64,000 nt of DNA from Clostridium beijerinckii (GTDB lineage Bacteria > Bacillota > Clostridia > Clostridiales > Clostridiaceae): positions 5,095,001 to 5,159,000 of the forward strand of contig NZ_CP144906.1 in NCBI RefSeq assembly GCF_036699995.1, read 5' to 3'. Made by a program: the position numbers and the translations under genes. The notes beneath the pieces were generated by a model. That model worked only from the letters and a program-made list of their open reading frames with translations, was not told where the DNA came from and made no database searches. Shown in pieces: positions 13,914 through 37,991 of this stretch. Each line of letters begins with the position of its first letter. Positions within the stretch are counted from its first letter, which is position 1.

Positions 13914-13950
13914 TTAATCGAATACATAATTATTGTGGAGGCGATTTATC

Positions 13951-15160: not shown

Positions 15161-15720
15161 TTAAATAACTTGTTTACTCACTTCTGATGGAGTTGATGCA
15201 TAGATATATTCATCAATGCAATTAACTACCCAATCTTTAATAAGTTCCTCTGGATCATTCCTTAACAATCCATTTCTTATCTTATTATATTGAATTGGCA
15301 TAAATTGATTTATTAAAGTCAACGGTATCTCCACAGACTTCATATTTTTTATTAAAATGTTTTGTGCGTATATTACTTCTTCTGTTGGAAAATAGTATCT
15401 TGATCTATCAGAGTAGCTATATTTTCTAGCATATTTAATTTTACTTCCTGCTCCATGATAATGTTTCCTCCAATTGCTTGGATTTTTGATCATTGCTTTA
15501 TCAAGTACTTCAATAAAATTTGAAATTTCTACATCTGCAGCATATTTAAATAATTCATTTTCCATATAACTCAAAGCGAAAAGTCCCTCTCTAAGTGCAA
15601 ACGTTAAAGCTGGTCCAACTTCTAGTATTGCGATTCCATCTTCAACCATTCTCTTCAAACTATCAGCTGTCTGATAATCTGTAGAATATCCTTTAAATAC
15701 AATATTATTATAAGATGCTT
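15161..15720 (-). pseudogene. 3' remnant of a gatZ/kbaZ-type tagatose-bisphosphate aldolase subunit gene
   Basis: Reading the minus strand from about 15720 gives a continuous frame with the hallmark GatZ/KbaZ sequence STDYQT, then ILEVGPALTFALREGLFAL, SYSDRSRYYFPTEEV and LTLINQFMPIQY. This is only the last 185 or so of about 420 residues. The open frame starts at an internal ATG at 15658, but homology continues upstream to the stop codon of the giant glycosyltransferase gene (15720), where it ends abruptly. The missing N-terminal half and lack of a ribosome site indicate a truncated relic. GatZ helps the GatY aldolase in galactitol/tagatose use; no gatY is present here. The junction marks a past recombination edge of the polysaccharide locus. 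Confidence 0.82.
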
Positions 15721-18700
15721 TACTGAAGATTTATTTTTTTATCTGTTATGATAAATTTTTTCTTATGCAACAATTTATTTTCTAAAAGCAATCCCACCTT
15801 ATACGTTTTTTTTGTCAATAATGATGAATCTATTGTACAAGAAAATCCACTTAAATTTAAATTTCCTTGTTTTTTCATAACACTTGTAACATCTTTTCTA
15901 ATTACAACATCTGTAGAAAATATACTATTATTACTTTCTTCATCAATTAATACAATTTTCTTAGAATTAAGATTATTAACTCTAATTCCTTCAATAAACG
16001 CCCATCCTTCAATTCGTATGTTGCTACCTACATTTATTGAATCTATACATGCTTTACAAGCATTACTAACCCACTTATTCTTTATTTCTATATTAATCTC
16101 CAACATTTTGTTAAACTCAGGTTTGTACTTAATATCATAATCAACTTTACATTCAGTCAAATTTGTATTATAGAACGGGTCCCATCCTTTAAATTGCTTG
16201 TGCTTATCGAACAAAATTTTACGTTCTTTCAATAACCTTGTCATTTTTTCTTTATTAATATCATCTATTCCTCTACTTATTGATTCATGATGATATAACG
16301 AAACATCATTCCTAACAACATTATAGTATTTATGCTCTACTAATTTAAAACAAAGATCCACATCATTATAAGCCACACTTAAGTTTTCATCAAATCCACT
16401 TATTTCTTCAAACTTATGCCTTTCAATCATTAGGCAAGCGCCTGTTACGGCAATAAAATTATACTCCATCCTATTTCTTCCATAATAATAAACTATTCTA
16501 TCATCAAATCCTATCTGACTATGTGATGGTCCAATTTTCAAATTAGTGATCCCAATATGTTGTATAATATTGCTATTAGGATATAATAACTTTGCACCGA
16601 CTGCTCCAACATGCTTAAGACTAGCTTGTCCCAACATAATTTCCAACCATTCTTCTTGAAAAATTTCAATATCATCATTTAAAAATAAATAGAATTTCCC
16701 TTTTGCTATTCTACTACCTATATTGCACATCTTTGAAAAATTAAAGTTCATTTTTTCATAATGGTATCTACAATTATATTTCTTACAAATATCTTCATAT
16801 TTGTTTTTATTTTCGTTATTACTTCCATTATCAACCACCACAATTTCATAATTGTAGTATGAAGTATATTTCTTAACTGATTCAATACAATTATTCAATA
16901 TTTTGAAATTATCTTTTGAAGGTATAATTATACTTACAAGTGGTTTCTCATCATTTGTATACTTAACTCTATACTGAAACATATCATTTACATATTCAAC
17001 AGTACCTTTAAGTCCACGTCTTTCCAGTGCCTCTTCTTTGCATCTTTTAACTGCTTGCAACGCATATGGCTTTGCTTCTGGATTTGATGCAATAGATTCT
17101 TCTCTTTCTCTCCAGTGATATAATATTTTATCAATATGTCCGATTTTTTTCGCCTTCTCAGTAAATCTTAGTGTAAAGTCATAATCCTGAGCCCCATTAA
17201 ACTCTGTACGTAATCCATCTATTTCATCTATGATGCTCTTTCTATAAACAGAAAAATGACATGTATACATTAATGACATAAAAGTATCTGGAGACCAATC
17301 TGGCTTAAAGAAAGGAGAATGCCTATGTTTACCGTCAGCAGTCAGCTTATCTTCATCACTATAAATAAAATCATACTCAGAATCTTCGTTTAATTTTTTA
17401 GCTACTTCGTATACCGCATTAGGAGCTAGTACATCATCACAATCTAAAAATGCAATAAACTCTCCATTAGCAATGCTTATCCCATCATTAGTTGCACGTG
17501 AAATATGTCCATTCTCTTTTCTATAAACAATATTAATTTTAGTATTCTTTTCATACTTATTAAGTACCTTTACAACACTATTCCATGTTGATGCATCATC
17601 AACTAAACATAATTGCCAATTATCGTATGTTTGATTTATAACAGACTCTATACATTCCACTAGTTGCTCGTCTAAAACATTATATACAGGAACAACTATA
17701 GATATCAATGGATTAAAACTTAATTCTCTCTTTTCGAATATATCCGATTCATTATCCTTAATCCATTTATAATATTCATTGTTATCAGTATTCTTTCTGT
17801 TTTTCAACTTCCTATATAACTTATAAAGAAAAGTTATTATACCTTCATCTTTCAAAATGCTTAGGCCTTTTTTAATATGTGGCATTTTGTTATATAATCT
17901 CATACTCCTAACCTTTCTTTCAGATTTTATTTTCTTTAAGTGGAATTTTTTTTTCACAAAATACTTAACTATAGGGTTAATATCTTTTCTAGCAATAAGT
18001 GCTTGAGGCCAATATATCTCAGTTCTAATATTTTTAAATAAAGTACCCAACTTTAATTTCGCTATGTACTTCATTTCATTCTTTTGTGCTACAAAGCCAT
18101 CCACATTTGGTAGATTTCCAATCTTAACTGCTTCTTCTTCTGTTGGTTCTTCTATTAATTTAAAAATTCCTCTTAATGCATCTTCTGGTTTTATTTCTAT
18201 ATTATATTTTTTAGCAAATCCATAGATTTCTTTTACATACGATAGTATCCCCTCGAATATATCTTGTTTATGATCATGGCTTGGTTCAATTTCCTCTAGT
18301 TCAGGACCATTTTCTCCATATCTCCAAACAGAGCTATGTGGTGCGCCAAAGAAAAGCTCTAATAATACAATTGAAGTCACTACTCTCTGTTCTAAATTGT
18401 AGTTAAATTCATGACCAAACAAATAACTCTCAAAACTCTTATTTCTCAATTGGCGTTTACTTTTATCATTATTCATTATCCCAGCATAAATAAATTTGTT
18501 TTTTTTATGGTACTCACATTTGTCCAAAAGCTTATCTAATAAATATTGAGAACTTCCATTCCATCCACAATCAAATATTACTGAATTACTTGAAAGAAAA
18601 TTTAAATTTTCAAAATATTTAATTGCATTTTCTCTTTCTTCTTTACAATTTTTCAATATACTTTTCTCATTTAAAGAAAATAACCTCTTCATCTTATCAA

Positions 18701-19808
18701 AGTCAGCTCTAGTACTTATAATATCATTAACACTATTGAATCCGGCATCTCGTAAAGTATTTTGTTCTATATCTTCTATATTCAAATATTCCAAAATATC
18801 CTTAACTTGCTGCCCATAAGTATATGGTGGAAGATTGTTTAGTGATTCCTCATCTAATTTATCAATCCCTGCTAATAATAATGCCCTTCTTGATGCATAC
18901 ATATAGTGAATATTATCGAAATTAAGTTCTTTAAAAATATTATGTAAAATGTAACCGTCTCTTGATAAAAAGTATATATTATCATATTCTTCTTTTTCTA
19001 AACACTTTTCCATCCAGTTTAATAAGCCAATGTATAAAGGCCCACCAACTCTTGCACCAAGATAATACCAAAAGCTCTTATTATTATTGTTATTTTTAAC
19101 GACATTCAAAACACCATGATTTATAAGATTAAATAAATTTAGACTATCTGAAGACATTTTAACCTCATCAAATTGATTACACTTGTAGTGTATTGCCTTA
19201 ATTCCTTTGCTACTGGAATTAGTAAAATCAGAGTTAAAGTTATCACCAATATGCAACATTTGATTTGGCTTAATTTTTTCAATATTCAATATTTCATCAA
19301 ATATATCTCCAACATACTTAGTTTTCCTTAAATCTGCCGAAACATATATCTCATCAAAGTCACTGAATCCACACTTATCCAAAAAACGCTTAACATCCTT
19401 TGATTTTATATACATATCACTTGTAGCAATTACTCTTTTATTAGAATTCTTAGCAAACTTGTAAACCTCAAGTATTTCTTTGTTGCAAACTAGTGAATCT
19501 AACTCCATTTCTAGCTCATAATTTTTAACATATTCCCAATCAACCTTCATATCAGATGTCTGCTTAATGTATTCATATATTTCATCTATATCAGCATGCG
19601 GAAATCCATATTCTCTTTCAACTTTCATACTCGCCATTTGCTGACCTTTTTGCCGAATTTCTTTAAAATCCTTTATATTTAAAATATAGCCTATTAATGT
19701 AAATATATCTTCCGGTTCATTGACTATTCTAAAAATTAATGTATCGAATATATCAAATGATACCACGTCTGCCGCAGCTATACTTTCTTTTATCAGCTCT
19801 ATATTCAT
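15720..19808 (-). CDS. Giant multidomain glycosyltransferase: HAD-like domain plus two GT2 domains
   Basis: 1362 residues. Residues 1-240 form a HAD-like domain (SFDIFDTLIFR with Asp19 and Asp22, VIATSDMYIKS, MLHIGDNFNSDF). A helical region (about 245-640) follows. The first GT2 domain starts near 699 (PLISIVVPVYNV, acidic motif FLDCDD) and a second near 958 (PLVSIIIPSKDN, FLNDDIEIF). A C-terminal beta domain (about 1255-1362, IRIEGWAFIEGI) may bind sugar. Similar large GT2 tandems build rhamnan or O-antigen-like chains. It is the last intact gene of the rml-wzm-wzt operon and lies 66 bases after the kinase/coiled-coil gene. Two GT2 domains suggest two linkages or a polymerising enzyme; the HAD domain's role is unknown. 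Confidence 0.88.
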   Translation of the reverse strand: MNIELIKESIAAADVVSFDIFDTLIFRIVNEPEDIFTLIGYILNIKDFKEIRQKGQQMASMKVEREYGFPHADIDEIYEYIKQTSDMKVDWEYVKNYELEMELDSLVCNKEILEVYKFAKNSNKRVIATSDMYIKSKDVKRFLDKCGFSDFDEIYVSADLRKTKYVGDIFDEILNIEKIKPNQMLHIGDNFNSDFTNSSSKGIKAIHYKCNQFDEVKMSSDSLNLFNLINHGVLNVVKNNNNNKSFWYYLGARVGGPLYIGLLNWMEKCLEKEEYDNIYFLSRDGYILHNIFKELNFDNIHYMYASRRALLLAGIDKLDEESLNNLPPYTYGQQVKDILEYLNIEDIEQNTLRDAGFNSVNDIISTRADFDKMKRLFSLNEKSILKNCKEERENAIKYFENLNFLSSNSVIFDCGWNGSSQYLLDKLLDKCEYHKKNKFIYAGIMNNDKSKRQLRNKSFESYLFGHEFNYNLEQRVVTSIVLLELFFGAPHSSVWRYGENGPELEEIEPSHDHKQDIFEGILSYVKEIYGFAKKYNIEIKPEDALRGIFKLIEEPTEEEAVKIGNLPNVDGFVAQKNEMKYIAKLKLGTLFKNIRTEIYWPQALIARKDINPIVKYFVKKKFHLKKIKSERKVRSMRLYNKMPHIKKGLSILKDEGIITFLYKLYRKLKNRKNTDNNEYYKWIKDNESDIFEKRELSFNPLISIVVPVYNVLDEQLVECIESVINQTYDNWQLCLVDDASTWNSVVKVLNKYEKNTKINIVYRKENGHISRATNDGISIANGEFIAFLDCDDVLAPNAVYEVAKKLNEDSEYDFIYSDEDKLTADGKHRHSPFFKPDWSPDTFMSLMYTCHFSVYRKSIIDEIDGLRTEFNGAQDYDFTLRFTEKAKKIGHIDKILYHWREREESIASNPEAKPYALQAVKRCKEEALERRGLKGTVEYVNDMFQYRVKYTNDEKPLVSIIIPSKDNFKILNNCIESVKKYTSYYNYEIVVVDNGSNNENKNKYEDICKKYNCRYHYEKMNFNFSKMCNIGSRIAKGKFYLFLNDDIEIFQEEWLEIMLGQASLKHVGAVGAKLLYPNSNIIQHIGITNLKIGPSHSQIGFDDRIVYYYGRNRMEYNFIAVTGACLMIERHKFEEISGFDENLSVAYNDVDLCFKLVEHKYYNVVRNDVSLYHHESISRGIDDINKEKMTRLLKERKILFDKHKQFKGWDPFYNTNLTECKVDYDIKYKPEFNKMLEINIEIKNKWVSNACKACIDSINVGSNIRIEGWAFIEGIRVNNLNSKKIVLIDEESNNSIFSTDVVIRKDVTSVMKKQGNLNLSGFSCTIDSSLLTKKTYKVGLLLENKLLHKKKFIITDKKINLQ

Positions 19809-19873: not shown

Positions 19874-21301
19874 CTATCTACCTAATAACTTTTTGGTCAT
19901 ACACAAAGCTTTCCATCCTTTACTAGCATGAATTTCATTAATATATTGTTCCTTATTTTTTAATTGTTCTTCTTTATTCTTTAGTTGTTCTTCTTTATTC
20001 CTTAGTTGTTCTTCTTTATTCCTTAATTGTTCTTCCATAATGCTTATTTGCTCTTTTAATTCATGTATTTCTTCTACTTCTTTTGTTAGCCCTTCAATTT
20101 TATAATACTCATGTTTTAATTGATCTTCTTTTTCTTGCAAAAGGCTATATAATCTCACTACAATTTCTTTAGATATCATTTGTACTTCTAGTTGAACCTC
20201 TATCCTACTTGTGTTTAATTTTATATCAGATAATACTATCTGCGGGTCATCAGTTGAAAACAATATGAATTTTTCTCTTAAACTTAATCCATTTGTAATT
20301 GCATCTAAAGAATAATAATTTTCATTGTATCCTAATATACTATCAATATTTACTATACACACATAATTAGAAGGATCAATTCTAATTTGCTTTGTATTAG
20401 ATGCTAATGGAATTTCAATTTTCACTTTATTATTAGAATCTATCTCTGGAATAAACTTATATGATTGAGATTCAGTAAATCCATTGCCATAATCATAAAA
20501 TACTTGCATAGTTTTTTTATAGGAATTTTTTCGCTCTCGTTCAATAACATTTTGAACATTGATATTCATTTCTGCGATTGTAGTATATAAATCTCTTGTT
20601 GGAATTAAGGTTCCCAAAACGTAAGATTGAAAGTTCCTTTCCATAATGTCATATTGTACTATTTCGTCATCCGTAATCCCCATTAATTTATACAACCCTA
20701 GATTTATTACTTCGTGGCGTTTAGCTGAACCGTACATATAGTAATGTAGAGCCCTATAAATAATAAAATTAAAAGGTATAGAAAAATTAAAAGACCACTC
20801 ATAATCTATAATATTCCACTTTTCCCCTACTATAATATTACTAAAAACTAAATCAATATCATTGATATCACCAGCTCTTAATGATGATGGTAAATTAACA
20901 TCTCCAAATATCTTTATGAAATCCTTTGTTTTTTTAAATTTTCCTGTTCCAATTCCAGTCTCTATAGTAGATACATATTCCTGTATTTTATTTACTAATT
21001 CATTATATCTTTTCTTCTTCAATAGTTCATCTAATTCTTCTTCTAGCGTACTACCCTCTATATATTCAAATTCTACTCCATCATCTATTCTGTGGCACTT
21101 ATTTATACATATCTTTGATCCTTTATACGCTTCTGATAATAATTTATAATTTTCATAAATACCATCAATATGAGTATCAGCTTCTTGCGTAAGTGCTTTC
21201 TTACGAACAAATCTATTTTCTAAGTCCTCTACAATATCAGTTCTAATTTTAAATTTGTCAGCCCTATCATTAGAATACTTAGAGTATATAACATTCTTCA
21301 C
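19874..21301 (-). CDS. Kinase-like protein with beta module and C-terminal coiled coil (WbdD kinase/ruler-like)
   Basis: 475 residues, starting three bases after the methyltransferase stop. Residues 1-235 look like a small-molecule/protein-kinase fold: a Lys candidate in VRKKAL (34-35), a catalytic-loop-like D150-LVFS-N155, and a DFG-equivalent Asp166 in NIIDYEW. A beta-rich module follows (about 264-375, beginning QVFYDYGNGFTE). Residues 385-460 form a coiled coil with four near-perfect EEQLxNK heptads. In E. coli O8/O9a, WbdD joins a methyltransferase, a kinase and a coiled-coil ruler that stops chain growth; here the same order is split over two genes beside Wzm/Wzt. Activity is inferred. 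It could instead be a glycosyl-kinase of another type or a pseudokinase. Confidence 0.68.
   Translation of the reverse strand: MKNVIYSKYSNDRADKFKIRTDIVEDLENRFVRKKALTQEADTHIDGIYENYKLLSEAYKGSKICINKCHRIDDGVEFEYIEGSTLEEELDELLKKKRYNELVNKIQEYVSTIETGIGTGKFKKTKDFIKIFGDVNLPSSLRAGDINDIDLVFSNIIVGEKWNIIDYEWSFNFSIPFNFIIYRALHYYMYGSAKRHEVINLGLYKLMGITDDEIVQYDIMERNFQSYVLGTLIPTRDLYTTIAEMNINVQNVIERERKNSYKKTMQVFYDYGNGFTESQSYKFIPEIDSNNKVKIEIPLASNTKQIRIDPSNYVCIVNIDSILGYNENYYSLDAITNGLSLREKFILFSTDDPQIVLSDIKLNTSRIEVQLEVQMISKEIVVRLYSLLQEKEDQLKHEYYKIEGLTKEVEEIHELKEQISIMEEQLRNKEEQLRNKEEQLKNKEEQLKNKEQYINEIHASKGWKALCMTKKLLGR
19952..20035 (-). repeat. Four tandem 21-bp repeats encoding coiled-coil heptads
   Basis: Four adjacent 21-bp units (19952-19972, 19973-19993, 19994-20014, 20015-20035) differ by only a few bases. 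Each encodes one heptad of the form EEQL(R/K)NK. Loss or gain of a unit keeps both frame and coiled-coil register. Confidence 0.9.
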
Positions 21302-21304
21302 GTA

Positions 21305-22231
21305 TTAATTCCTCCCTTTTTCCAAAACTACTAAGTATGAATTCGAATATATAGGAAATAGATTTTCTTTTATAATCATATCGTACACTCTAGTTTCATC
21401 AAATGTAATAATACGTTCTCTATCAAAATTCCTCATGTTATTATTAAGTTCACCTTTTTTAGGCAAATACTTATCTGAGTAGATAGTTGTTGGTAATTTA
21501 TAATCTGGATATGGATAATAAAACTTATAATTAAAGAATCCACTATTCTTTATAATTTCCTCTAATTCTTTTTTAGAAAATGTTTTTACTCCGTTTGTAA
21601 TTGGGTAATCTTCTATACTTTCAAAGTACTTCCCTACATGGTCCTCTTGACAACCAGCCCAATATTTTAGACCTAATTTATTTTCTATAGCAATTATAAT
21701 TTTTCCGTTTTCATTTAAGTGTTTACCTATTATAGTTAAAAAGTTTTCATAAGGTTTTTCAGTAGAAATATACTTTTCTCCATATTCAAATACACCTATA
21801 AGTGTTATATAGTCGTATTTTTCTACAATATCTTTTTCACTCTCCTCAAAATTGCCTAACCAAATTTCTATATTATCTTTTTCCTTATTCCTATAGGCGT
21901 TAATAAGGCTTCTTTTTTCAGATAGTTCAATGCATGTAACTTTTTTAGCTTTACTTGCTAAAGTTCCAGTAATCGCTCCACATCCAGAACCTATTTCTAA
22001 TATAGTATCTTGCTTTGTAATAGGTAACCATTCTACTATATTAGCTCTCAAATGAGATAAATGATACATTATCGCCCACTTATTACTTTGAGCAATTATC
22101 TTATTATATTCCTTTTCCTCGTGATTTTTAACAATTCCCAAAAGTTCATCTTCAACTTCACCATCACTGTATAAATCAACACCTGAGTAATGCTTATAAT
22201 TCAAAGTTAAGTTTCCAATTTTCTCATTCAT
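21305..22231 (-). CDS. Class I SAM-dependent methyltransferase of the glycan locus
   Basis: 308 residues. The SAM-binding motif I is ILEIGSGCGAIT (around residue 75), followed by TCIELSEKR (motif II acidic residue) and YDYITLIGVFEY. The N-terminal 60 residues are an extra segment seen in glycan-linked methyltransferases. The gene lies between wzt and the kinase/coiled-coil gene, with gaps of 18 and 3 bases, so the three are probably coupled. In WbdD-type systems the methyltransferase caps the non-reducing end of the chain, alone or on a phosphate added by the kinase. In Geobacillus S-layer glycans a methylated rhamnose ends the chain. A cap-forming role is inferred here. Confidence 0.85.
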   Translation of the reverse strand: MNEKIGNLTLNYKHYSGVDLYSDGEVEDELLGIVKNHEEKEYNKIIAQSNKWAIMYHLSHLRANIVEWLPITKQDTILEIGSGCGAITGTLASKAKKVTCIELSEKRSLINAYRNKEKDNIEIWLGNFEESEKDIVEKYDYITLIGVFEYGEKYISTEKPYENFLTIIGKHLNENGKIIIAIENKLGLKYWAGCQEDHVGKYFESIEDYPITNGVKTFSKKELEEIIKNSGFFNYKFYYPYPDYKLPTTIYSDKYLPKKGELNNNMRNFDRERIITFDETRVYDMIIKENLFPIYSNSYLVVLEKGRN

Positions 22232-22249
22232 AGTATGCCTTCCTTAATT

Positions 22250-23512
22250 CTACTTTATTTTTACTTCTGAATTCATATCATAGTAGCCAATCGAATTTTT
22301 ATGTGAAACTACAGTGATATTGCATACATCATAAAGTCTATGATATACGGTAAAATCCCCATCTCTATAGCCAGTGCATCCTAAGGATAAAAGATATTGT
22401 CCACCCTGTATATTCATATTTTGCGTAAAACTTATCTCTTTTATGTCTCCCTGCTCTATAACTGAAATATCTTCTTTCTCTATCATTGTATTAGTTCCTG
22501 TAATTTCTGTACCCTTTAAATCTTTAATCGTGAATGCAAAAATAGGATTTTGAATTTTTTTATTAAATAAGACTTTCATTTTGATCATAAATATAGTTCC
22601 TTTGGTTATATTATTTGTTATAATACCTGTATTATCAACGATACCAAAGTCTATTATCTCCGCAAATTTATTCCCATACTCTAGTGTATCGGGATTAACT
22701 GTCAATGACCTTTTCCATTGACCTTTTTCGATATATTTATTTTGCGAAATATGATTTATATCATAACTATCATCCTGCTGATTCACCAACACTTTTTTAT
22801 ACATATCAATAGATTCCTTGGGATTTCCTTCACAAATTTTTCTTCCTCTATTTAGCAAAATTACCCTATCACAATACTTACTAATGCTTCCCAAATCATG
22901 GCTTACAAATAAAATTGTTTTTCCTTCTGATTTAAATTCCTCAAATTTCCTATAACATTTATTTTGAAAGAAAACATCCCCTACTGAAAGTGCTTCATCA
23001 ACGATTAAGATCTCAGGCTCAATATTAATAGCTACTGCAAAAGCTAATCTAACAAACATACCACTAGAGTAAGTTTTTACAGGTTGATTAATAAATCCAC
23101 CTATATCTGCAAATTCAATAATATTATTCACTTTTCTATCGATTTCTTCCTTTGTGAACCCCATCATAGTTCCATTAAGATAAATATTTTGAATTCCAGT
23201 ATATTCTTGATTAAAACCCGCTCCCAATTCTAGTAAAGCCGATATTCTTCCATTTACTTCAACCCTCCCAAGTGTTGGATTTAATACCCCTGTAATAATT
23301 TTTAATATCGTAGACTTTCCTGAGCCATTAGTACCAATAATACCCAGAGTTTCTCCTTTTTTTATTTCGAAATTTATATCATTTAATGCATAATGTTCAT
23401 GATATAAAACCTTCCTTGTAAAAAAAAGAGACTCTTTTAATCTATCTATTGGCTTATCATACAACTTATATATTTTACTTAAGTGTTCCACGTTTATGGC
23501 TATATCATTCAT
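22250..23512 (-). CDS. wzt: Polysaccharide ABC exporter ATPase with C-terminal domain (Wzt/TagH type)
   Basis: 420 residues. The ATPase half (1-240) has Walker A GTNGSGKST, signature YSSGMFVRLAFAVA, Walker B ILIVDEALSVGD and switch His in FVSHDLGSISKYC. A beta-rich C-terminal extension (about 260-420, from TVNPDTLEYGNKFAEI) matches the Wzt C-terminal domain. In E. coli O8/O9a that domain recognises the methylated or phosphorylated chain end before export. It pairs with the permease encoded 12 bases upstream, and the neighbouring methyltransferase and kinase genes would supply the recognised cap. Confidence 0.92.
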   Translation of the reverse strand: MNDIAINVEHLSKIYKLYDKPIDRLKESLFFTRKVLYHEHYALNDINFEIKKGETLGIIGTNGSGKSTILKIITGVLNPTLGRVEVNGRISALLELGAGFNQEYTGIQNIYLNGTMMGFTKEEIDRKVNNIIEFADIGGFINQPVKTYSSGMFVRLAFAVAINIEPEILIVDEALSVGDVFFQNKCYRKFEEFKSEGKTILFVSHDLGSISKYCDRVILLNRGRKICEGNPKESIDMYKKVLVNQQDDSYDINHISQNKYIEKGQWKRSLTVNPDTLEYGNKFAEIIDFGIVDNTGIITNNITKGTIFMIKMKVLFNKKIQNPIFAFTIKDLKGTEITGTNTMIEKEDISVIEQGDIKEISFTQNMNIQGGQYLLSLGCTGYRDGDFTVYHRLYDVCNITVVSHKNSIGYYDMNSEVKIK

Positions 23513-23524
23513 TTAAAATCTCTC

Positions 23525-24901
23525 CTATAATACATCTGCAAAATGAGGCTTTAATTTTTTAAACACAACTGCTCCAATTGCAAATACTCCTAATGTTACT
23601 ACCCAAAAATATATTGTTTGAAAATACCTTTCATAAAACCAAACATGATTTATAAATGTATCTCTATATCCTTCAACTATGTAATACATAGGACTTAATT
23701 TTAATATCCACTGATATTGTTGAGGTACCATTGTATAACTCCACATTATTGGTGTTAACCACATTCCTACTTGTAAGAATATATTTATTATTTGTCCAAG
23801 ATCTTTAAAGAATATTACTATTGCTGATGTAGCATATGATATTCCAAGTACAATACAAAATGTACAGAATGAGTAATATATCAATTGCGTTGTATATAGA
23901 GATGGATAAAATCTATATATCGCTGCAACAAAAAACAAGAATACTATAAACACTAAATGTACAAATAGTGCTGATAATATTTTTACTATTGGCAGTATAC
24001 TAATCTTAAAAACAACCTTCTTAACCAAATAAGTATACTCTAACATACAATTTGTAGCATTTAAAAGCGCTTCCTGAAAGAAGAACCATGGTACGAGACC
24101 TGACATAAACCATACTATAAATGGTACTCCTTTAATAGGAGAACCTGATTTCAATCCATATTCGAAAACGAACCAATAAACCAATATAGTTACTATTGGC
24201 TGAATAAATGCCCAAATTATTCCTAAGTATGATCCCGCATACTTAGTTTTAAAATCATTTTTTGATAAACTCCATATTAATGTCTTGTTATTTTTTAATT
24301 CTTGGATTAATATCAAAACACTTCTTGATTTTCTTAAGACAATCGCTGCTAATATATCTATTAAAATACAACTTCCTAATTTAATTGCATTATTTATGGA
24401 ATCCTCATATTCAATAAGACCGGATATTAAAGTTGAATCCATTTTATATACTACATATGGATCATTACCTATAGTCTCTATATTTAAAGAATTGTTTATT
24501 TCTTGCACTTCTCCAATTTGATTTTCGTTATTCTCATTTAATATTTCATTCAAATCTATATTTATACTTTTTCCCCAGCATGACAACTTAATCTCTGATA
24601 CATTTATATTTGCTGGGTGTTCACCAAAATCAAATCTTAAATTTGTTATATCTTTTGGAATTGAAAATTTGAGTGTTTCTTGTCTATTTATATTTGTATA
24701 ACTATTTCTTTGCGACTGTTCTTCACTCCATAGCATGTCAGTTCCATAAAATACTTGATAGCTATCTTGTTCATTCGATACTATTTTATAACTTAATGTT
24801 ATATTTTTATCATCTATGTTACAAAATTTAAATATTAATATATTTGTTATAAAAATTAATGATACTAATATTGTTAATTTAATAAACTTTCTCTTATTCA
24901 T
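23525..24901 (-). CDS. wzm: Polysaccharide ABC exporter permease (Wzm/TagG type) with N-terminal extracytoplasmic domain
   Basis: 458 residues, much longer than the usual 260. Residues 195-458 are a typical ABC-2/Wzm permease (FKTKYAGSYLGIIWAFIQP, LVPWFFFQEAL, SPMYYIVEGYRDTFI). The first 190 residues add a membrane helix (about 8-26), an extracytoplasmic beta-rich domain (about 45-110, with YQVFYGTDMLWSEEQSQ and LRFDFGEHP) and a second helix (about 170-190). That domain resembles the beta module in the kinase/coiled-coil protein. It forms the membrane channel with the Wzt-type ATPase. The start ATG at 24901 follows AGAGGAAAT. Confidence 0.88.
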   Translation of the reverse strand: MNKRKFIKLTILVSLIFITNILIFKFCNIDDKNITLSYKIVSNEQDSYQVFYGTDMLWSEEQSQRNSYTNINRQETLKFSIPKDITNLRFDFGEHPANINVSEIKLSCWGKSINIDLNEILNENNENQIGEVQEINNSLNIETIGNDPYVVYKMDSTLISGLIEYEDSINNAIKLGSCILIDILAAIVLRKSRSVLILIQELKNNKTLIWSLSKNDFKTKYAGSYLGIIWAFIQPIVTILVYWFVFEYGLKSGSPIKGVPFIVWFMSGLVPWFFFQEALLNATNCMLEYTYLVKKVVFKISILPIVKILSALFVHLVFIVFLFFVAAIYRFYPSLYTTQLIYYSFCTFCIVLGISYATSAIVIFFKDLGQIINIFLQVGMWLTPIMWSYTMVPQQYQWILKLSPMYYIVEGYRDTFINHVWFYERYFQTIYFWVVTLGVFAIGAVVFKKLKPHFADVL

Positions 24902-24916: not shown

Positions 24917-25756
24917 TTATTTCAATTCTATTAAGTATCTATCCAATGCGTTTTCCCAATTAGGTAATAACCCGAAACCATTATCCACAAGACTTTTCTT
25001 TGAAAGCCTTGAATTAAAAGGTCTTTGTGCTTTTGCTGGATATTCACTTGTAGGAATAGGATTTACTTTACAACTTAGTCCAGCTTCTTTCATAATTTCC
25101 CCAGCAAATTCAGCCCAAGAGCAAAATCCTTCATTAGTAGCATGGTACACGCCATACTTCTCTGAAACTGCCATATCACATAAAAGTGGTGCTAAATCTG
25201 CTGTATATGTTGGGCTTCCTATTTGATCACAAACAACATTTAAACTTTCTTTTTCACTTCCTAATCTAAGCATTGTTTTAATGAAGTTATTTCCATTAAC
25301 TCCAAACACCCACGAAATTCTAACAATAAAGTACTTATCTAAAACTTCCTTAACCTTTAATTCACCTTCATATTTAGTCTTTCCGTAAACTGAATGCGGT
25401 TCAATTTTATCCTCAACTTCAAACGGAGTATTTCCTTTCCCATCAAATACATAATCAGTAGATATGTAAATCATCTTAGCGCCTATTTCCTTACAAGCCT
25501 TTGCTATATTCTCTGTACCATATACATTTACTTTAGCGCAGACTTCTTCCTCATCCTCCGCTCTATCAACAGCTGTATAAGCTGCGCAATGTATAACACA
25601 ATCAGGTTTTAATTTTCCAATGCAATCCTTAACTGCATTCTTATCTGTAATATCTAATTCTGCTCTATCAATTCCTAGGCATTCAATATTTCTTCTATTT
25701 AATTCTTTAACTACATCATAACCTAATTGACCGTTTACTCCTGTAACTAAAATCAT
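24917..25756 (-). CDS. rmlD: dTDP-4-dehydrorhamnose reductase
   Basis: 279 residues of the extended SDR fold. The N-terminal NAD(P) motif is TGVNGQLGYDV, followed by DRAELDITD, CAAYTAVDRAEDEE and the catalytic YxxxK in SVYGKTKYEGE. It catalyses the last step to dTDP-L-rhamnose. It is encoded 15 bases after the GT2 gene and 15 bases before wzm, in one operon with rmlA, rmlC and rmlB. Confidence 0.96.
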   Translation of the reverse strand: MILVTGVNGQLGYDVVKELNRRNIECLGIDRAELDITDKNAVKDCIGKLKPDCVIHCAAYTAVDRAEDEEEVCAKVNVYGTENIAKACKEIGAKMIYISTDYVFDGKGNTPFEVEDKIEPHSVYGKTKYEGELKVKEVLDKYFIVRISWVFGVNGNNFIKTMLRLGSEKESLNVVCDQIGSPTYTADLAPLLCDMAVSEKYGVYHATNEGFCSWAEFAGEIMKEAGLSCKVNPIPTSEYPAKAQRPFNSRLSKKSLVDNGFGLLPNWENALDRYLIELK

Positions 25757-25770: not shown

Positions 25771-26772
25771 TTATAATATCCCCTTTTTAGTTAGTCTAAT
25801 TATATACTTAAAAACAAATTCAGGCATAATAGGTAGAAATATTTCTAACACAATTGATGCTTTGTAATATTTACTATATTTTATAATAATCTTCAATTCT
25901 TTTAATGAAGGCTTCAAGAAATAGCTTCTTCTAGCCCTGAGAGATGTTATGCAATAATTTAGATGCCCTTGCAACTCTCCAATATATCCCAATCTGTTTT
26001 TTAATGAAATATACCTTTCCAAAACATCTTCGATTTTAAATTTACAGTAAGTATTTTTATCGTATATTCCTTTTAAAATACCAGTTTGATTTGAATTATG
26101 TTGTCTATATCTAACTAATGGTTTATTAACAAACTCTATTTTTCCATTTATTGATGCTATAATTGCAATCCAATTATCATGGACCAATGAATCAACAAAT
26201 GGTATTGCTTTCTTAGCAATATTGCTTCTTACAATCATTGCACAACCTGTAACAAAATTTCTTTCTAACAAACCCTCGGTCAAATCATATCCTGATTTAT
26301 ATATTATTCTTTTTCTAATTTCAGTTATACTATTTGCTGTTTTCGTTCCATTTTCATCAATTATCGAAAGATCGCTGCATACTAAAGTTACATCATCTTC
26401 CTTAAATTCATCCATAATTATAGATATCTTATCTTTTTCCCAAATATCATCTTGGTCACAATATGCAAAAAACTCTCCATTCCCAATTTTCGTAAGTTCC
26501 TCAAAAGCTTTATTAGAGCCTTCATTTGTCTTTCCTCTTATAACTGTGTAATTAAAATTTGTTATGCACTTCTTTAAAAAATCTTCACTTGTTGGAAAAT
26601 CAGGACAATCATCATAAACAAATAGCTCTAGATTATTATAAGTTTGCTCGTTTAATGAAATCAACTGTTCTATAAACCAGTTTTCATTTGGTTTATAGAC
26701 AGCTAGTAATATAGATACTAATGGCTTATCTACTTCCATACATCTTGTCATAGTAATTCTGATATTCTCCAC
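25771..26772 (-). CDS. GT2-family glycosyltransferase, rhamnosyltransferase-like
   Basis: Up to 333 residues. A GT-A fold begins at PLVSILLAVYKPN, with acidic motifs VYDDCPDF and YCDQDDIWEKDK (the latter typical of RfbF/RgpB-type rhamnosyltransferases), then RSNIAKKAIPF and VRYRQHNSNQTG. The gene overlaps the end of rmlB. The longest frame starts at GTG 26772, with ATG alternatives at 26751 and 26739; none has an ideally spaced ribosome site, so translation may be coupled to rmlB. It probably transfers rhamnose from dTDP-L-rhamnose to the lipid-linked glycan in the cytoplasm. Confidence 0.88.
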   Translation of the reverse strand: MENIRITMTRCMEVDKPLVSILLAVYKPNENWFIEQLISLNEQTYNNLELFVYDDCPDFPTSEDFLKKCITNFNYTVIRGKTNEGSNKAFEELTKIGNGEFFAYCDQDDIWEKDKISIIMDEFKEDDVTLVCSDLSIIDENGTKTANSITEIRKRIIYKSGYDLTEGLLERNFVTGCAMIVRSNIAKKAIPFVDSLVHDNWIAIIASINGKIEFVNKPLVRYRQHNSNQTGILKGIYDKNTYCKFKIEDVLERYISLKNRLGYIGELQGHLNYCITSLRARRSYFLKPSLKELKIIIKYSKYYKASIVLEIFLPIMPEFVFKYIIRLTKKGIL

Positions 26773-27745
26773 TAATAATATTTTCCCACCAAGCTTTATT
26801 ATCTAAATACCATTCGATAGTCTTTTTGATGCCTTCATCAAAAGTTGTTGTTGGAAGCCATCCAAGCTCATTATGAATCTTTGCAGGATCTATTGCATAA
26901 CGCATATCATGCCCTTTACGATCTGTTACATATTTTATTAATGTTTCTGGTTTTCCAAGTTCATGAAGTACAGTTTTTACTACTTGTAAATTTGTACGTT
27001 CATTATGTCCACCAATATTATATACTTCTCCAACTTTTCCTTCATGAATAATTAGATCAATTGCTCTGCAATGATCTTCAACATAGAGCCAATCACGTAC
27101 ATTTTCTCCAGTTCCATATACAGGCAATTCCTTATCATTTAACGCATTTGCTATCATAAGCGGAATTAACTTTTCTGGAAAATGATATGGCCCATAGTTA
27201 TTTGAGCATCTTGAAATTGTAACTGGTAGTTCATAAGTTCTATGATATGCACCCACTAAAAGATCCGCAGACGCTTTACTTGATGAATACGGACTTGAAG
27301 TGTGTATAGGAGTTTCCTCTGTAAAGAAAAGATCTGGTCTATCAATAGGTAAATCTCCATAAACTTCATCTGTTGATACTTGATGGTATCTCTTTATTCC
27401 ATATTTTCTACAAGCATCCATAAGAACAGCCGTACCAATAATATTTGTTTTTAAAAATATTTCTGGATTTTCAATTGAACGATCCACGTGACTTTCAGCT
27501 GCAAAATTAACTACCATGTCAGGATGTTCTTTTTCAAACATGTCATATACTGCATCTCTATCAGCTATATCTATTTTATAAAGGCTAAAATTAGAATTAT
27601 CCTTAACTGATACGAGTGTTTCCATATTTCCAGCATAAGTTAACGCATCTACGCAGATAATTTTATAATCTTTATATTTATTAAGCATATAGTGAACAAA
27701 GTTACCACCTATAAACCCTGCTCCACCTGTTACAACTATTTTCAT
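26726..27745 (-). CDS. rmlB: dTDP-glucose 4,6-dehydratase
   Basis: 339 residues of the extended SDR family. NAD motif TGGAGFIGGNFV, the AAESHVDRS segment, VSTDEVYGD carrying the catalytic Thr-Asp-Glu, and YSSSKASAD with the YxxxK pair are all present. It converts dTDP-glucose to the 4-keto-6-deoxy intermediate for rhamnose. The 165-base gap upstream (to rmlC) contains an intergenic repeat. Its 3' end overlaps the next glycosyltransferase gene. Confidence 0.97.
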   Translation of the reverse strand: MKIVVTGGAGFIGGNFVHYMLNKYKDYKIICVDALTYAGNMETLVSVKDNSNFSLYKIDIADRDAVYDMFEKEHPDMVVNFAAESHVDRSIENPEIFLKTNIIGTAVLMDACRKYGIKRYHQVSTDEVYGDLPIDRPDLFFTEETPIHTSSPYSSSKASADLLVGAYHRTYELPVTISRCSNNYGPYHFPEKLIPLMIANALNDKELPVYGTGENVRDWLYVEDHCRAIDLIIHEGKVGEVYNIGGHNERTNLQVVKTVLHELGKPETLIKYVTDRKGHDMRYAIDPAKIHNELGWLPTTTFDEGIKKTIEWYLDNKAWWENIISGEYQNYYDKMYGSR

Positions 27746-27910: not shown

Positions 27911-28462
27911 TTATTTATTATATATAAATGTACAATCGCTATCTTTAAGTAATGGTGCTTTTTTATCTTTTTCAGAAAGGATAGGATTTTCTATTCCCCA
28001 TTCAACACCAATTTCAGGATCATCAAATTTTATACTTCTATCACTTTCGTAATTATAATAATTATCAGTTTTATAAACAAACTCAACATCATCAGTTAAT
28101 GTTAAAAATCCATGTCCAAAGCCTCTAGGTATAAATAATTGTTTTTTATTTTCTGCTGAAAGTTCCACAGCTACCCATTCCTTATATGTAGGTGATCCTT
28201 TTCTTAAATCTACAGCTACATCTAAGACAGCTCCTTTTACACATCTCACTAACTTAGCTTGAGCATTTTCACCATTTTGAAAATGAATTCCTCTAAGTAT
28301 TCCTTTTCCCTTAGAATATGATTGATTATCTTGGCAAAAGTCACAAGCAATTTCTGGTGTTTTTATTCTAGAGTAAGTTTCCATAAACCATCCTCTTTCA
28401 TCTCCAAAAACTTGTGGTTCTACTATGTAAACACCTTCTAATTTAGTTTTTATCAAATTCAT
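27911..28462 (-). CDS. rmlC: dTDP-4-dehydrorhamnose 3,5-epimerase
   Basis: 183 residues from ATG 28462, which has AGAGAGG eight bases upstream; the frame extends 24 bases more. Cupin fold with the family phrases VFGDERGWFMETYS, LRGIHFQNGENAQAKLVRC (active-site His), LDVAVDLRKGSPTY and FIPRGFGHGFLTL. It epimerises C3 and C5 of the 4-keto sugar. It is encoded after rmlA with a short gap. Confidence 0.96.
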   Translation of the reverse strand: MNLIKTKLEGVYIVEPQVFGDERGWFMETYSRIKTPEIACDFCQDNQSYSKGKGILRGIHFQNGENAQAKLVRCVKGAVLDVAVDLRKGSPTYKEWVAVELSAENKKQLFIPRGFGHGFLTLTDDVEFVYKTDNYYNYESDRSIKFDDPEIGVEWGIENPILSEKDKKAPLLKDSDCTFIYNK

Positions 28463-28496
28463 TATAGATACCTCTCTTTGATTCATTATTTAGAAA

Positions 28497-29378
28497 TTAA
28501 TAAATAACTTTCCCTTCAGCAACATTTTTTAAATGTTGTCCATAAGGACTCTTTCCATATTGCTCTGCGCTTTCAAGTAATGTTTTCTTATCTATCCAGC
28601 CATTCTTATAAGAAATCTCTTCCAAACAAGCTATCTTAAGACCATGCCTAGTTTCAATTACTTTTACATATTCTGAAGCTTCTGTTAAACTATCTACTGT
28701 TCCAGTGTCAAGCCATCCATATCCTCTTCCAAGTGTTATTACATCTAAGTTTCCTTGTTCAAGGTAAATTTTATTTAAATCTGTAATCTCTAATTCTCCT
28801 CTTTGGGATGGCTTTAGCCTCTTAGCGTATTCACATACTTTATTATCATAAAAATAAAGCCCTGTTACAGCATAATTAGATTTTGGATTCTCTGGTTTCT
28901 CTTCCAACGATACAGCTTTTCCATTAACATCAAATTCTACTACTCCAAAACGTTCTGGATCATCTACATAGTATCCAAAAACTGTTGCACGGCCTTTATT
29001 TTCTACTGCTTTTTTCAAATGATTTTTAAGTCCATTTCCGTGAAATATATTATCTCCAAGAATCATTGCACAATTATCATTTCCTATAAATTCTTCTCCC
29101 AAAATAAATGCTTGAGCTAGTCCATCTGGAGAGGGCTGCACTTTATAAGATAAATTTATTCCATATCTAGATCCATCACCTAGTAACTTTTCAAAATTAG
29201 GTAGATCATTAGGTGTTGAAATTATTAATATATCCTTGATTCCTGCTAACATTAAGGTTGATAATGGATAATAAATCATAGGCTTATCATATACTGGCAA
29301 TAGTTGTTTTGAAGTTACCATAGTCAGTGGATAAAGCCTTGTCCCACTTCCACCCGCAAGTATTATACCTTTTGTCAA
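28497..29378 (-). CDS. rmlA: Glucose-1-phosphate thymidylyltransferase
   Basis: About 293 residues. The nucleotide-binding signature [16 protein letters not shown] opens the protein, followed by [18 protein letters not shown] and LGDNIFHG, as in all RmlA enzymes. No ATG is available: candidates are GTG 29387 and TTG 29378. The TTG lies ten bases after AGGAAG and gives the usual N-terminus, so it is preferred. It makes dTDP-glucose and is the first gene of the leftward glycan operon, whose promoter should lie in 29388-29806. Confidence 0.94.
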
Positions 29379-29387
29379 AATAATCAC

Positions 29388-29806: not shown

Positions 29807-31225
29807 ATGATAAAGGAAAATCAAAACCTATTGAATAAATTTAATGCTATTTCAGATATTATAATTTTATTTATTTCAATTACACTAGCATACTTAATTC
29901 GTTTTTATATTTTTTCACCTGACACTTATTACATAACTTTAACTACATACATTGAATTTTCTGTTATAATAATTCCAATAAATCTAATTTTGTTTAATTT
30001 TTTTAACCTCTATCACTCTTTTAGAACAAGATCGTTTGTAAAAGAATGTAGCGCAATAATTAAGTCCAACACAATTCTTACTGCTGTTCTTCTATCATTG
30101 TTATTTGTTCTAAAATTGGTACACATTTCAAGGTTAGTTATTATCATTTTTTATTTTGTGAATATTATGTTAATAATGGCCAAAAGACTGATTTTAAGAA
30201 AAATATTATCAAGAATGAGAACTAAAGGGTTAAATTTAAAACATGTAGTAATTGTTGGTGCCGGAGAGGTTGCAAATGAATACTTAGACGTTCTTAAAAA
30301 TAATAAAAGCTTTGGATATAATTATTCTGGATATGTATCAGATGTTTCTAATTTCCAGGGCAGAAAGCTTGGAAACTATTCTGATTTATATAATGTTTTA
30401 AATGAATATAAACCTGATGAAGTTGTTTGTGCTCTTGATCTATCAGATGCAAAATATTTAGAAAATATAGTTTCAGATTGCGAAAAAAGTGGTACAAAAA
30501 TTTCCATAATACCATTTTGCTATAAATATATTCCAAGCCAACCATATATTGACCAACTCGGAAGCATTCCTCTAATTAATATAAGAAGAATTCCATTAGA
30601 TAACTTAGGAAATGCCTTTATAAAAAGATCCTTAGACATACTAGGTTCACTTTTTTTAATATTATGTACAAGTCCTATAATGATTATCACTGCTGTGATT
30701 ATTAAATTCACTTCAAATGGTCCTATAATATTTAAGCAAAAACGTGTTGGATTAAACAAAAATTTATTTGTTATGTATAAATTTAGGTCCATGAAAATTA
30801 ATTCACAAGAGGAAACAGGCTGGAGTACCGATAATGATCCTAGAAAAACTAAATTTGGTTCCTTTATTCGTAAATTTTCCATAGATGAATTACCTCAATT
30901 CTTTAATGTATTAAAAGGTGATATGAGCTTAGTAGGTCCTAGACCTGAGCTCCCACATTTTGTTGAAAACTTTAAAAATGAAATTCCTCTTTACATGGTA
31001 AAACATCAAGTAAAACCTGGAATAACTGGATTAGCCCAGGTAAATGGCTATAGAGGTGATACTTCTATAAAAAAAAGAATTGAATTTGATATTCACTATA
31101 TAGAAAACTGGAATATCTTAATGGATATCAGTATATTGTTTAAAACTGCCTTCAAAGGGTTTAAAAATAATGAAAAAATCAGGATAAATAGCACTAAGTC
31201 GACAAATAATGAAGTTAATTTATAA
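29807..31225 (+). CDS. Undecaprenyl-phosphate sugar phosphotransferase (WbaP/CpsE type)
   Basis: 472 residues. The N-terminal half has four to five membrane helices and a CoA-binding-like region (VVIVGAGEVANEYL). A further helix near residue 275 precedes the C-terminal catalytic domain with KRSLDILGS, FKQKRVGLNKNLFVMYKFRSM, SIDELPQFFNVLKGDMSLVGPRPE and KPGITGLAQVNGYRG, the complete polyprenyl glycosylphosphotransferase signature. It transfers a sugar-1-phosphate to undecaprenyl phosphate and so primes the repeat unit or chain. GGATGATATAG precedes the ATG. It starts the rightward glycan unit. Confidence 0.95.
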   Translation: MIKENQNLLNKFNAISDIIILFISITLAYLIRFYIFSPDTYYITLTTYIEFSVIIIPINLILFNFFNLYHSFRTRSFVKECSAIIKSNTILTAVLLSLLFVLKLVHISRLVIIIFYFVNIMLIMAKRLILRKILSRMRTKGLNLKHVVIVGAGEVANEYLDVLKNNKSFGYNYSGYVSDVSNFQGRKLGNYSDLYNVLNEYKPDEVVCALDLSDAKYLENIVSDCEKSGTKISIIPFCYKYIPSQPYIDQLGSIPLINIRRIPLDNLGNAFIKRSLDILGSLFLILCTSPIMIITAVIIKFTSNGPIIFKQKRVGLNKNLFVMYKFRSMKINSQEETGWSTDNDPRKTKFGSFIRKFSIDELPQFFNVLKGDMSLVGPRPELPHFVENFKNEIPLYMVKHQVKPGITGLAQVNGYRGDTSIKKRIEFDIHYIENWNILMDISILFKTAFKGFKNNEKIRINSTKSTNNEVNL

Positions 31226-37147: not shown

Positions 37148-37183
37148 AATTTCTTTTCCTCCTAAATTTTAAAATTCAGATAA

Positions 37184-37937: not shown

Positions 37938-37991
37938 GGCTAGAATTCTCACTACGCAACACTATCTACTAATTTAAAATTTTCTTCCTGA

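What the first reader, a model, noticed from the sequence alone, without database searches (positions are those of the whole stretch)
19874..24901. Split WbdD-like chain terminator and ruler beside Wzm/Wzt in a Gram-positive locus
The sequence shows four adjacent genes in order: ABC permease, ATPase with Wzt-like C-terminal domain, methyltransferase, and a kinase-like protein (D150/N155/D166 pattern) ending in a coiled coil. In E. coli O8/O9a, WbdD fuses exactly methyltransferase, kinase and coiled coil; it caps the chain, sets its length, and Wzt's C-terminal domain reads the cap. The same functions in the same order but on two separate polypeptides, spaced three bases apart, would be a clostridial counterpart not usually described in Gram-positives.
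Basis: partly seen in the sequence, partly recalled or inferred. Interest (0 to 1): 0.85.

Follow-up and report, generated by a model that had tools for sequence, protein, structure and literature searches.

The report
Clostridial sugar-chain capping enzyme pair
A Clostridium carries, next to a sugar-chain exporter, a methyltransferase gene and a kinase gene that most likely put a methyl-phosphate cap on a finished rhamnose-containing surface chain, and the rod-like tail of the kinase differs from that of its closest relatives in seven-residue steps, so the length of a surface sugar chain may be set and changed by a simple DNA repeat.

Summary
In detail: permease, ATPase with Wzt_C domain, methyltransferase (MT) and a kinase-like protein with a rod-like tail lie in that order, MT and kinase three bases apart. 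Chain capping by kinase plus MT is well supported, but WbdD is not the relative. The MT, the kinase domain and the next gene's GT2 modules are homologous to a Pseudomonas protein that carries the published residue signature of Klebsiella pneumoniae O7 ORF6, an MT-kinase-CBM-coiled-coil-GT protein shown by others to put methyl-phosphate on O-3 of terminal rhamnose. Here that protein is spread over three genes. The arrangement is not rare: 73 of 80 named loci have all four functions, with MT fused to kinase in 37. In 391 Clostridia genomes, 22 of 23 with the kinase also have Wzt_C (48 of 368 without it). Two unexpected features: part of the rod is coded by 21-bp repeats, and its length differs by 7 or 14 residues from the three closest relatives; and the domain between kinase and rod recurs, predicted outside the membrane, on the permease. 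Catalysis, cap chemistry and ruler function were not tested, and no structure could be predicted.

The parts
23525..24901 (-). Wzm-like ABC-2 permease, 458 aa, with an extra N-terminal segment (TM helix, about 140-residue domain, TM helix) before the ABC-2 core
   Evidence: ORF; PF01061 at 208-416; hydropathy: 5-30, 169-199, then the core helices
24398..24826 (-). permease residues about 26-168: predicted extracytoplasmic domain, homologous to the domain between kinase and rod
   Evidence: hhalign probability 92.7%, E 4.3e-7, 95 columns; six control profiles at most 0.6%; present in 10 of 75 permease-bearing named loci
22250..23512 (-). Wzt-like ATPase, 420 aa
   Evidence: best PDB match 8dku, E 3.3e-86
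22274..22684 (-). Wzt_C carbohydrate-binding domain (PF14524), residues 277-413; the only one in the genome
21305..22231 (-). class-I SAM methyltransferase, 308 aa; Y21, Y56, G81, G83, E102, Y150 correspond to the SAM-site residues reported for O7 ORF6
19874..21301 (-). kinase - beta-type domain - rod - C-terminal SKxWK motif protein, 475 aa
20516..21301 (-). APH-like kinase domain, residues 1-262 (K34, G83, D150, N155, D166, E168, W169 invariant in the 87-protein alignment)
20132..20515 (-). domain of residues 263-390 (beta-type by inference), in the place of the CBM reported for O7 ORF6
   Evidence: match to the Pseudomonas protein at this place is weak: E 0.0072, probability 5.4%
19934..20131 (-). 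rod (proposed ruler), residues about 391-456
19934..20035 (-). 21-bp tandem array coding the last part of the rod (4.8 copies, 87% matches)
15720..19808 (-). next gene: HAD-type phosphatase domain plus two GT2 modules, 1362 aa; residues 673-1230 are 36.5% identical to the GT part of the Pseudomonas O7-type protein
24917..25756 (-). rmlD
   Evidence: TIGR01214 over cut-off
25771..26772 (-). GT2 glycosyltransferase
26726..27745 (-). rmlB
   Evidence: TIGR01181 over cut-off
27911..28486 (-). rmlC
   Evidence: TIGR01221 over cut-off
28497..29387 (-). rmlA
   Evidence: TIGR01207 over cut-off
29807..31225 (+). initiating undecaprenyl-phosphate sugar phosphotransferase (WcaJ type)
   Evidence: TIGR03023 over cut-off
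32377..34209 (+). O-antigen-ligase/polymerase-type membrane protein (Wzy_C), possible glycan ligase
   Evidence: PF04932

Best explanation
A chain-termination and export-licensing module for a rhamnose-containing surface glycan, made of separate polypeptides. Polymerisation on undecaprenyl pyrophosphate goes on (GT2 modules of the 1362-aa protein and neighbours; dTDP-rhamnose from RmlA-D) until the non-reducing end reaches the kinase, which is held off the membrane by its rod. The kinase phosphorylates the terminal rhamnose (O-3 by analogy with K. pneumoniae O7); the separate MT methylates the phosphate; extension stops; Wzt_C binds the capped end and Wzm/Wzt exports the chain. Shown here: the gene set and its conservation, an APH-like kinase domain (by profile alignment) with all catalytic residues, homology of MT, kinase and GT modules to an O7-type protein, and rod length differing by whole heptads from the closest relatives. 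Inferred: substrate, cap chemistry, contact between MT and kinase, ruler function, and that Wzt_C reads this cap.
For: Gene set and order. Catalytic residues invariant in 87 aligned proteins and aligned with APH. MT against the Pseudomonas 1457-aa protein 31.8% over 296 aa, E 5.6e-43; GT modules 36.5% over 573 aa, E 1.2e-107; kinase profile against the Pseudomonas/Citrobacter kinase regions probability 96.8%, E 2.3e-10, 200 columns. That Pseudomonas protein has Y28, Y66, G91, G93, E112, Y158, the very residues and numbers given for O7 ORF6, and Asp 443 near the place of the catalytic D441. ORF6 phosphorylates and methylates O-3 of terminal Rha, and D441A loses the kinase and export (PMC11231755, first part of section 11 and passages read). 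Kinase and Wzt_C co-occur: 22 of 23 against 48 of 368 genomes (Fisher p 3e-17); with two more kinase genomes recognised later (G060, G261) 23 of 25 against 47 of 366 (p 5e-17). 18 of 18 genomes with a strong MT match (E at most 1e-60) also encode the kinase (G060).
Against: No structure could be predicted. No Pfam kinase model is among the matches listed for 50 members (25 of 64 families shown). The O7 ORF6 sequence itself was not fetched; the link runs through a plasmid-borne Pseudomonas relative. The two-sequence gammaproteobacterial kinase profile does not itself match APH (0.2%). The domain after the kinase matches that relative only weakly (E 0.0072) and was found in 13 of 25 unnamed loci (80 of 80 named ones). 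The last heptads of the rod carry one leucine each, so the rod may be a single helix or a weak coil. Exceptions: L028 has fused MT-kinase without transporter in 9 kb upstream; G344 has a kinase without MT or Wzt_C; G364 has no MT beside it; G166 has Wzt_C on another contig; G060 has none listed, its contig being 3.8 kb. The Citrobacter relative lacks the second catalytic Asp. Tails under 40 residues are found in 17 of 37 fused and 10 of 30 separate proteins of the named loci, so a rod is not a feature of the whole family.
Confidence: 0.8

Rival explanations
1. Cap without methyl-phosphate: the MT methylates a sugar hydroxyl directly (as reported for Geobacillus WsaE) and the kinase makes a separate phosphate group, for instance one that ends up as a 2,3-cyclic phosphate on rhamnose like the end group found on a C. 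difficile S-layer glycan.
For: PMC6254364 (abstract, section 12 and passages): the ABC-exported, rhamnose-containing SLCT-11 glycan ends in 2,3-cyclophosphoryl-rhamnose. C. difficile proteins homologous to MT (P0223, P0193) and kinase (P0238) exist. WsaE: PMC2943079 (passages).
Against: The nearest relatives with a tested function (O7 ORF6) make methyl-phosphate. That the C. difficile proteins lie in the SLCT-11 locus was not shown: none of the 8 held genomes of the genus taken for Clostridioides has the kinase.
Confidence: 0.15
2. A true WbdD homologue that has been split in two.
For: Same gene order as E. coli HS (O9) wzm-wzt-MT/wbdD-wbdA; shared end-of-rod motif; both have Wzt_C.
Against: Kinase profile against WbdD probability 0.2%, while APH and Ser/Thr-kinase profiles find it; WbdD matches APH and Pkinase models in Pfam, no such match is listed for this family; the MT shares only the SAM motif with WbdD. 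Only one WbdD sequence was used.
Confidence: 0.04
3. Capping is right, but the tail is only a tether or recruiting helix; the 21-bp repeats vary neutrally and glycan length is set otherwise.
For: Of 12 distinct pairs with at least 85% domain identity and tails of 40 or more residues that differ in tail length, 5 differ by 1, 1, 4, 4 or 8 residues; 30 of 80 named kinases have tails under 40 residues after the middle domain or, if fused to more protein, no separate rod was shown (27 under 40); the heptads are poor in hydrophobic residues.
Against: The other 7 of 12 pairs differ by 7, 14 or 21, although 6 of the 7 come from one group of four proteins. All five distinct arrays with score over 100 among 107 kinase ORFs have periods divisible by 21 and lie after the kinase domain. 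In E. coli WbdD and the K. pneumoniae terminators coil length is said to set chain length (PMC5082667, PMC11231755, passages).
Confidence: 0.4

Closest known systems
Klebsiella pneumoniae O7 ORF6 (MT-kinase-CBM-coiled coil-GT2-GT2 chain terminator/polymerase; PMC11231755)
   Same: Order of modules, MT SAM-site residues, APH-like kinase with equivalent catalytic Asp, domain before the rod, GT2 modules, rhamnose pathway, Wzt with a carbohydrate-binding domain (in the Pseudomonas and Citrobacter relatives)
   Different: Gram-positive host; three polypeptides instead of one; HAD domain on the GT protein; homologous extra domain on the permease; 21-bp-repeat rod. Compared through a Pseudomonas relative, not with the ORF6 sequence
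E. coli O9/O9a WbdD
   Same: Kinase + MT + rod next to wzm-wzt with Wzt_C; end-of-rod S(K/R)xW(K/R) motif; presumably the same kind of cap
   Different: Kinase not detectably homologous, MT only at the SAM motif; WbdD is one polypeptide, its coil follows the kinase directly (PMC3482155, passages)
Geobacillus stearothermophilus WsaE (S-layer glycan 2-O-methyl cap; PMC2943079)
   Same: Gram-positive, rhamnan, MT-based termination, Wzm/Wzt export
   Different: MT fused to two GTs, no kinase named; that review says an additional length-determining factor is possibly required (passages)
C. difficile SLCT-11 S-layer glycan locus (PMC6254364)
   Same: ABC-exported rhamnose-containing glycan with a phosphate end group in a species that has MT and kinase homologues
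   Different: Capping enzyme not identified in what I read; presence of the homologues in that locus not shown here

Membership tests
O7 ORF6-type MT-kinase terminator | MT homologous over its length with the SAM-site residues Y28, Y66, G91, G93, E112, Y158 | tested here: met
   31.8% over 296 aa, E 5.6e-43 to the Pseudomonas protein with identical numbering; window Y21, Y56, G81, G83, E102, Y150. ORF6 itself not aligned
O7 ORF6-type MT-kinase terminator | APH/AmiN-like kinase with the catalytic Asp (D441 in ORF6) | tested here: met
   APH register, D150 aligned with Pseudomonas D443; invariant in 87 aligned proteins
O7 ORF6-type MT-kinase terminator | CBM-like domain after the kinase | tested here: inconclusive
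   colinear, but E 0.0072, probability 5.4%
O7 ORF6-type MT-kinase terminator | coiled coil between catalytic part and membrane/GT part | tested here: inconclusive
   heptad rod present, but its last part is poor in hydrophobic residues; GT modules on the next gene, 36.5% identical
O7 ORF6-type MT-kinase terminator | partner Wzt with carbohydrate-binding C-terminal domain | tested here: met
   PF14524 in the window and in the Pseudomonas and Citrobacter loci
O7 ORF6-type MT-kinase terminator | adds methyl-phosphate to O-3 of terminal rhamnose | not testable with these tools
   needs purified proteins and NMR
WbdD (E. coli O9a) | WbdD-type kinase domain | tested here: not met
   probability 0.2%
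WbdD (E. coli O9a) | WbdD-type MT domain | tested here: not met
   only the SAM-motif stretch aligns
WbdD (E. coli O9a) | MT, kinase and coil on one polypeptide next to wzm-wzt | tested here: not met
   two polypeptides here; one 708-aa protein in E. coli HS
WsaE | MT fused to rhamnosyltransferases, no kinase | tested here: not met
   separate MT with an adjacent kinase; WsaE's own sequence not compared

The most novel reading that the evidence does not exclude
A surface-glycan ruler that can be retuned by DNA slippage: in-frame 21-bp repeats lengthen or shorten the terminator's rod in whole heptads (about 1 nm each), so sister strains make chains of different modal length. The same enzyme pair makes the phosphate end group of clostridial S-layer glycans, whose reported 2,3-cyclophosphoryl-rhamnose could arise from a 3-O-methylphosphate by attack of the cis 2-OH with loss of methanol.
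Probability: 0.3. Interest if true: 0.82.

Novelty: new variant of a known kind. Interest (0 to 1): 0.68.

Why it matters
It brings phosphate-type chain capping with export control into Gram-positives, where review PMC2943079 (passages) leaves the length-determining factor of an S-layer glycan open. It offers an enzyme candidate for phosphate end groups such as the one on a C. difficile S-layer glycan. Close natural relatives whose rods differ by one to three heptads make a ruler experiment almost ready-made. The shared domain on terminator and permease points to a second contact with the glycan, beyond Wzt_C.

Tried and rejected
WbdD kinship: tested by BLASTP, HMMER and hhalign and rejected for kinase and MT.

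Single-sequence and profile searches of PDB sequences with the kinase gave only weak hits in the coiled-coil part (E 0.2 or more); Pfam and NCBIfam listed no kinase.

Kinase profile against Ser/Thr kinases: probability 32% over 40 columns only; a forced global alignment gave nothing.

C. difficile context: viral-contig scans with P0238 and P0223 gave no relative; the plasmid search gave two gammaproteobacterial loci instead, which turned out to be the key relatives, and no more when repeated with the Pseudomonas protein; none of 8 held genomes of the genus taken for Clostridioides has the kinase, while G492 (Romboutsia) and G494 of that family carry the same operon. The 2013 paper on the locus was not held; passages of PMC5225093 and PMC6814731 did not list its genes. 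E. coli genomes hold no close copy of the Citrobacter gene.

A claim that all rod-length differences are heptads was rejected: 7 of 12 close pairs fit, 5 do not. A first count that most fused proteins have short tails was wrong and was mended: 17 of 37 have tails under 40.
Full report
WHAT IS THERE. On the minus strand the window (G000:C1:5095001-5159000 of a 5.55-Mb single-contig genome) encodes, in transcription order, rmlA, rmlC, rmlB, a GT2, rmlD (all four rml over an NCBIfam cut-off), a Wzm-like permease, a Wzt-like ATPase with Wzt_C, a class-I methyltransferase (MT), a 475-aa protein and a 1362-aa HAD + GT2 + GT2 protein. On the other strand lie an initiating sugar phosphotransferase and a Wzy_C-type ligase/polymerase. 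The genus is Clostridium: G005, marked same genus, is C. weizhouense by its contig.

IS THE 475-AA PROTEIN A KINASE? Pfam, NCBIfam and PDB sequence searches list no kinase. A search of the protein collection gave 116 homologues, many of 680-830 residues with MT domains. In an alignment of the window protein with 86 of them ten columns never vary, among them K34, G83, D150, N155, D166, E168 and W169. A profile of the first 268 residues (201 sequences) aligns with a profile of 29 APH-type kinases from related genomes at probability 79%, E 1.6e-5, over 161 columns, with the invariant residues on the APH beta-3, hinge and catalytic residues (the names of those APH positions are recalled). Seven control families gave at most 1.3%, and 100 column shuffles reached score 19.0 at most against 38.4 for the real profile trimmed in the same way.

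WHICH FAMILY? WbdD from E. coli HS (O9) has the same gene order around it, but neither kinase nor MT is related to it beyond the SAM motif, although APH and Ser/Thr-kinase profiles do find that WbdD sequence (82.6% and 94.8%). Only the end of the rod with its S(K/R)xW(K/R) motif aligns. A tblastn search of plasmids with a C. difficile MT homologue found two gammaproteobacterial loci with permease, ATPase with Wzt_C and then a 1457-aa protein (Pseudomonas asturiensis) or a 649-aa protein (Citrobacter braakii). The Pseudomonas protein carries Y28, Y66, G91, G93, E112 and Y158, the residues and numbers given for the MT of K. pneumoniae O7 ORF6, and Asp 443 near the place of catalytic D441. The window MT matches it at E 5.6e-43, the GT2 modules of the next gene at E 1.2e-107 (36.5%), and the kinase profile matches the kinase regions of both gammaproteobacterial proteins at probability 96.8%, E 2.3e-10, over 200 columns; those two sequences alone do not match APH (0.2%). 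So MT, kinase protein and GT protein of the window together correspond to one O7-type polypeptide. ORF6 was shown to phosphorylate and methylate O-3 of terminal rhamnose, and D441A abolished the kinase and left unexported polymer (PMC11231755; first part of section 11 and passages read). That paper names orthologues from alpha- and gammaproteobacteria and cyanobacteria; the words Gram-positive and Firmicutes do not occur in its main text.

HOW COMMON? A scan of genome contigs found 449 relatives, of which the best 80 were kept. In those 80, the MT is fused to the kinase in 37, separate beside a kinase under 880 aa in 30, and the kinase is part of a longer protein (over 880 aa, partner not domain-tested) without MT in 13; MT present in 79, Wzt_C within 6 kb in 75, permease in 75, all four functions in 73. 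Six of the seven incomplete loci are cut by a contig end within about 3 kb upstream; L028 is a true exception. This set is biased to near relatives. An even draw of 391 Clostridia genomes gave 30 with a profile match; I dropped seven whose match did not cover the kinase domain (G114, G121, G169, G199, G232, G259, G288), leaving 23. Of these 22 have Wzt_C against 48 of 368 others (Fisher p 3e-17), 21 of the 22 on the same contig within about 6 kb (places). Two further genomes of the draw, looked at because of their MT or Wzt_C match, also have a fused MT-kinase (G060, G261; G190 and G380, looked at likewise, do not); with them it is 23 of 25 against 47 of 366. In the loci of the 23 (the window itself for G000) 14 have the MT fused, 7 separate and adjacent, and 2 lack it (G344, G364). 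Fused and separate states change at least 24 times on a 222-row FastTree tree, 12 times if only well-supported branches count, so the split is an easily reversed detail. Presence among relatives is patchy: 4 of 59 genomes match, the window's own included, and one of them (G033) only in the tail.

THE ROD. The window kinase has 475 residues; its nearest database relatives P0001, P0002 and P0003 have 482, 468 and 461. In kinase plus middle domain they are 98.7, 90.5 and 92.6% identical to it, and the tails are 90, 76 and 69 residues against 83: steps of 7 made of 'NKEEQLK'-type heptads. The window DNA has a 21-bp tandem array at 19934-20035. Among 107 kinase ORFs scanned, 27 have some array; all five distinct arrays with score over 100 (window, C. 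puniceum, C. weizhouense, G031, G060; the last ends at a contig end) have periods of 21, 42, 63, 105 or 126 bp and lie after the kinase domain; weaker arrays with other periods exist, for example 22, 24 and 30 bp. Counting all distinct pairs with at least 85% domain identity and tails of 40 or more residues that differ in tail length, 7 of 12 differ by a multiple of 7, six of the seven within the window's group; the other five differ by 1, 1, 4, 4 and 8. At lower identity two more groups step by heptads (tails 88/74/67 in P0018, P0015, P0020; 75/54/47 in C. puniceum, P0013, P0008). Whole-heptad steps keep the helix register, which is what a ruler would need; WbdD coil length is reported to set chain length (PMC5082667, passages). 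Against it: the repeated heptads have one leucine each, and 27 of the 67 fused or separate named kinases have tails under 40 residues.

THE EXTRA DOMAIN. Residues 263-390 form a domain that recurs in the N-terminal, predicted extracytoplasmic part of the 458-aa permease (hhalign probability 92.7%, E 4.3e-7; six controls at most 0.6%; profile of 11 permeases). The permease extension is a minority feature: 10 of 75 named loci with a permease. On the kinase the domain is found in 80 of 80 named and 13 of 25 unnamed loci. It is not related to Wzt_C by the same test (0.2%). Its place fits the CBM of ORF6, but the direct match to the Pseudomonas protein is weak. I read it as a glycan-contacting domain; that is inference.

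LINK TO A KNOWN GLYCAN. C. difficile strains of S-layer cassette type 11 make an ABC-exported rhamnose-containing S-layer glycan ending in 2,3-cyclophosphoryl-rhamnose; the authors speculate that it serves like the phosphate of E. coli O9a (PMC6254364; abstract, section 12 and passages). C. difficile has homologues of the MT (P0223, reported on 1000 contigs; P0193) and the kinase (P0238). In the same bacterial family the operon rmlACB-wzm-wzt-MT-kinase is present in G492, whose contig length equals that given for Romboutsia lituseburensis P0062, and in G494. Whether the C. difficile proteins lie in that cassette could not be shown.

NOVELTY. Searches for WbdD with Clostridium, chain termination in Gram-positives, WsaE, SLCT-11, rulers, Wzt/Wzm with Clostridium, and tandem repeats with rulers (open-licence PMC papers only; listings, with passages of some) showed no description of a kinase-MT terminator in a Gram-positive or of a repeat-tuned ruler. 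A bioinformatic paper on other kinase-MT families mentions Clostridium among hosts of one of them, Lani_1194, and likens another, Lcin_0519, to WbdD (PMC9758233, passages); I did not compare those families by sequence. I file this as a new variant of the O7-type terminator.

Noticed in passing
window 19227-19769 (1362-aa protein, N-terminal HAD domain): The GT2-GT2 polymerase protein begins with an intact-looking HAD phosphatase domain (PF00702 E 8.1e-7; motif SFDIFDTL by eye); a phosphatase on the polymerase beside a kinase on the terminator is odd and unexplained. HAD matches also occur in L069, L060 and L023.
   Followed up: partly
window 24398-24826 and 20132-20515: The same domain sits, by prediction, outside the membrane on the permease and inside the cell on the kinase protein.
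   Followed up: yes
window 13933-15084 and 35345-47628: About eight secreted proteins with choline-binding-type repeats by eye, three Pfam-checked (two of them with cadherin-like domains), flank the glycan locus; possible glycoproteins or users of a choline-bearing wall polymer.
   Followed up: no
window 15161-15658: 165-aa ORF matching only the C-terminal third of GatZ/KbaZ (profile 269-419 of 420): a gene remnant.
   Followed up: no
window 55197-63875: 2892-aa ORF, by its look a cyclic beta-glucan synthase type protein (name recalled); no NCBIfam match at E 1e-10.
   Followed up: no
P0086 and close copies (604 aa): Kinase domain followed by what look like three tandem copies of the middle domain and no rod or MT (by eye).
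   Followed up: no
L223:6923-8872: The Citrobacter plasmid relative has Glu where the second catalytic Asp of the kinase should be (FEREW for IDVEW); possibly an altered or inactive kinase.
   Followed up: no
L203 (G140), 9556: An 803-aa neighbour of a kinase also carries the middle domain (residues 359-470).
   Followed up: no
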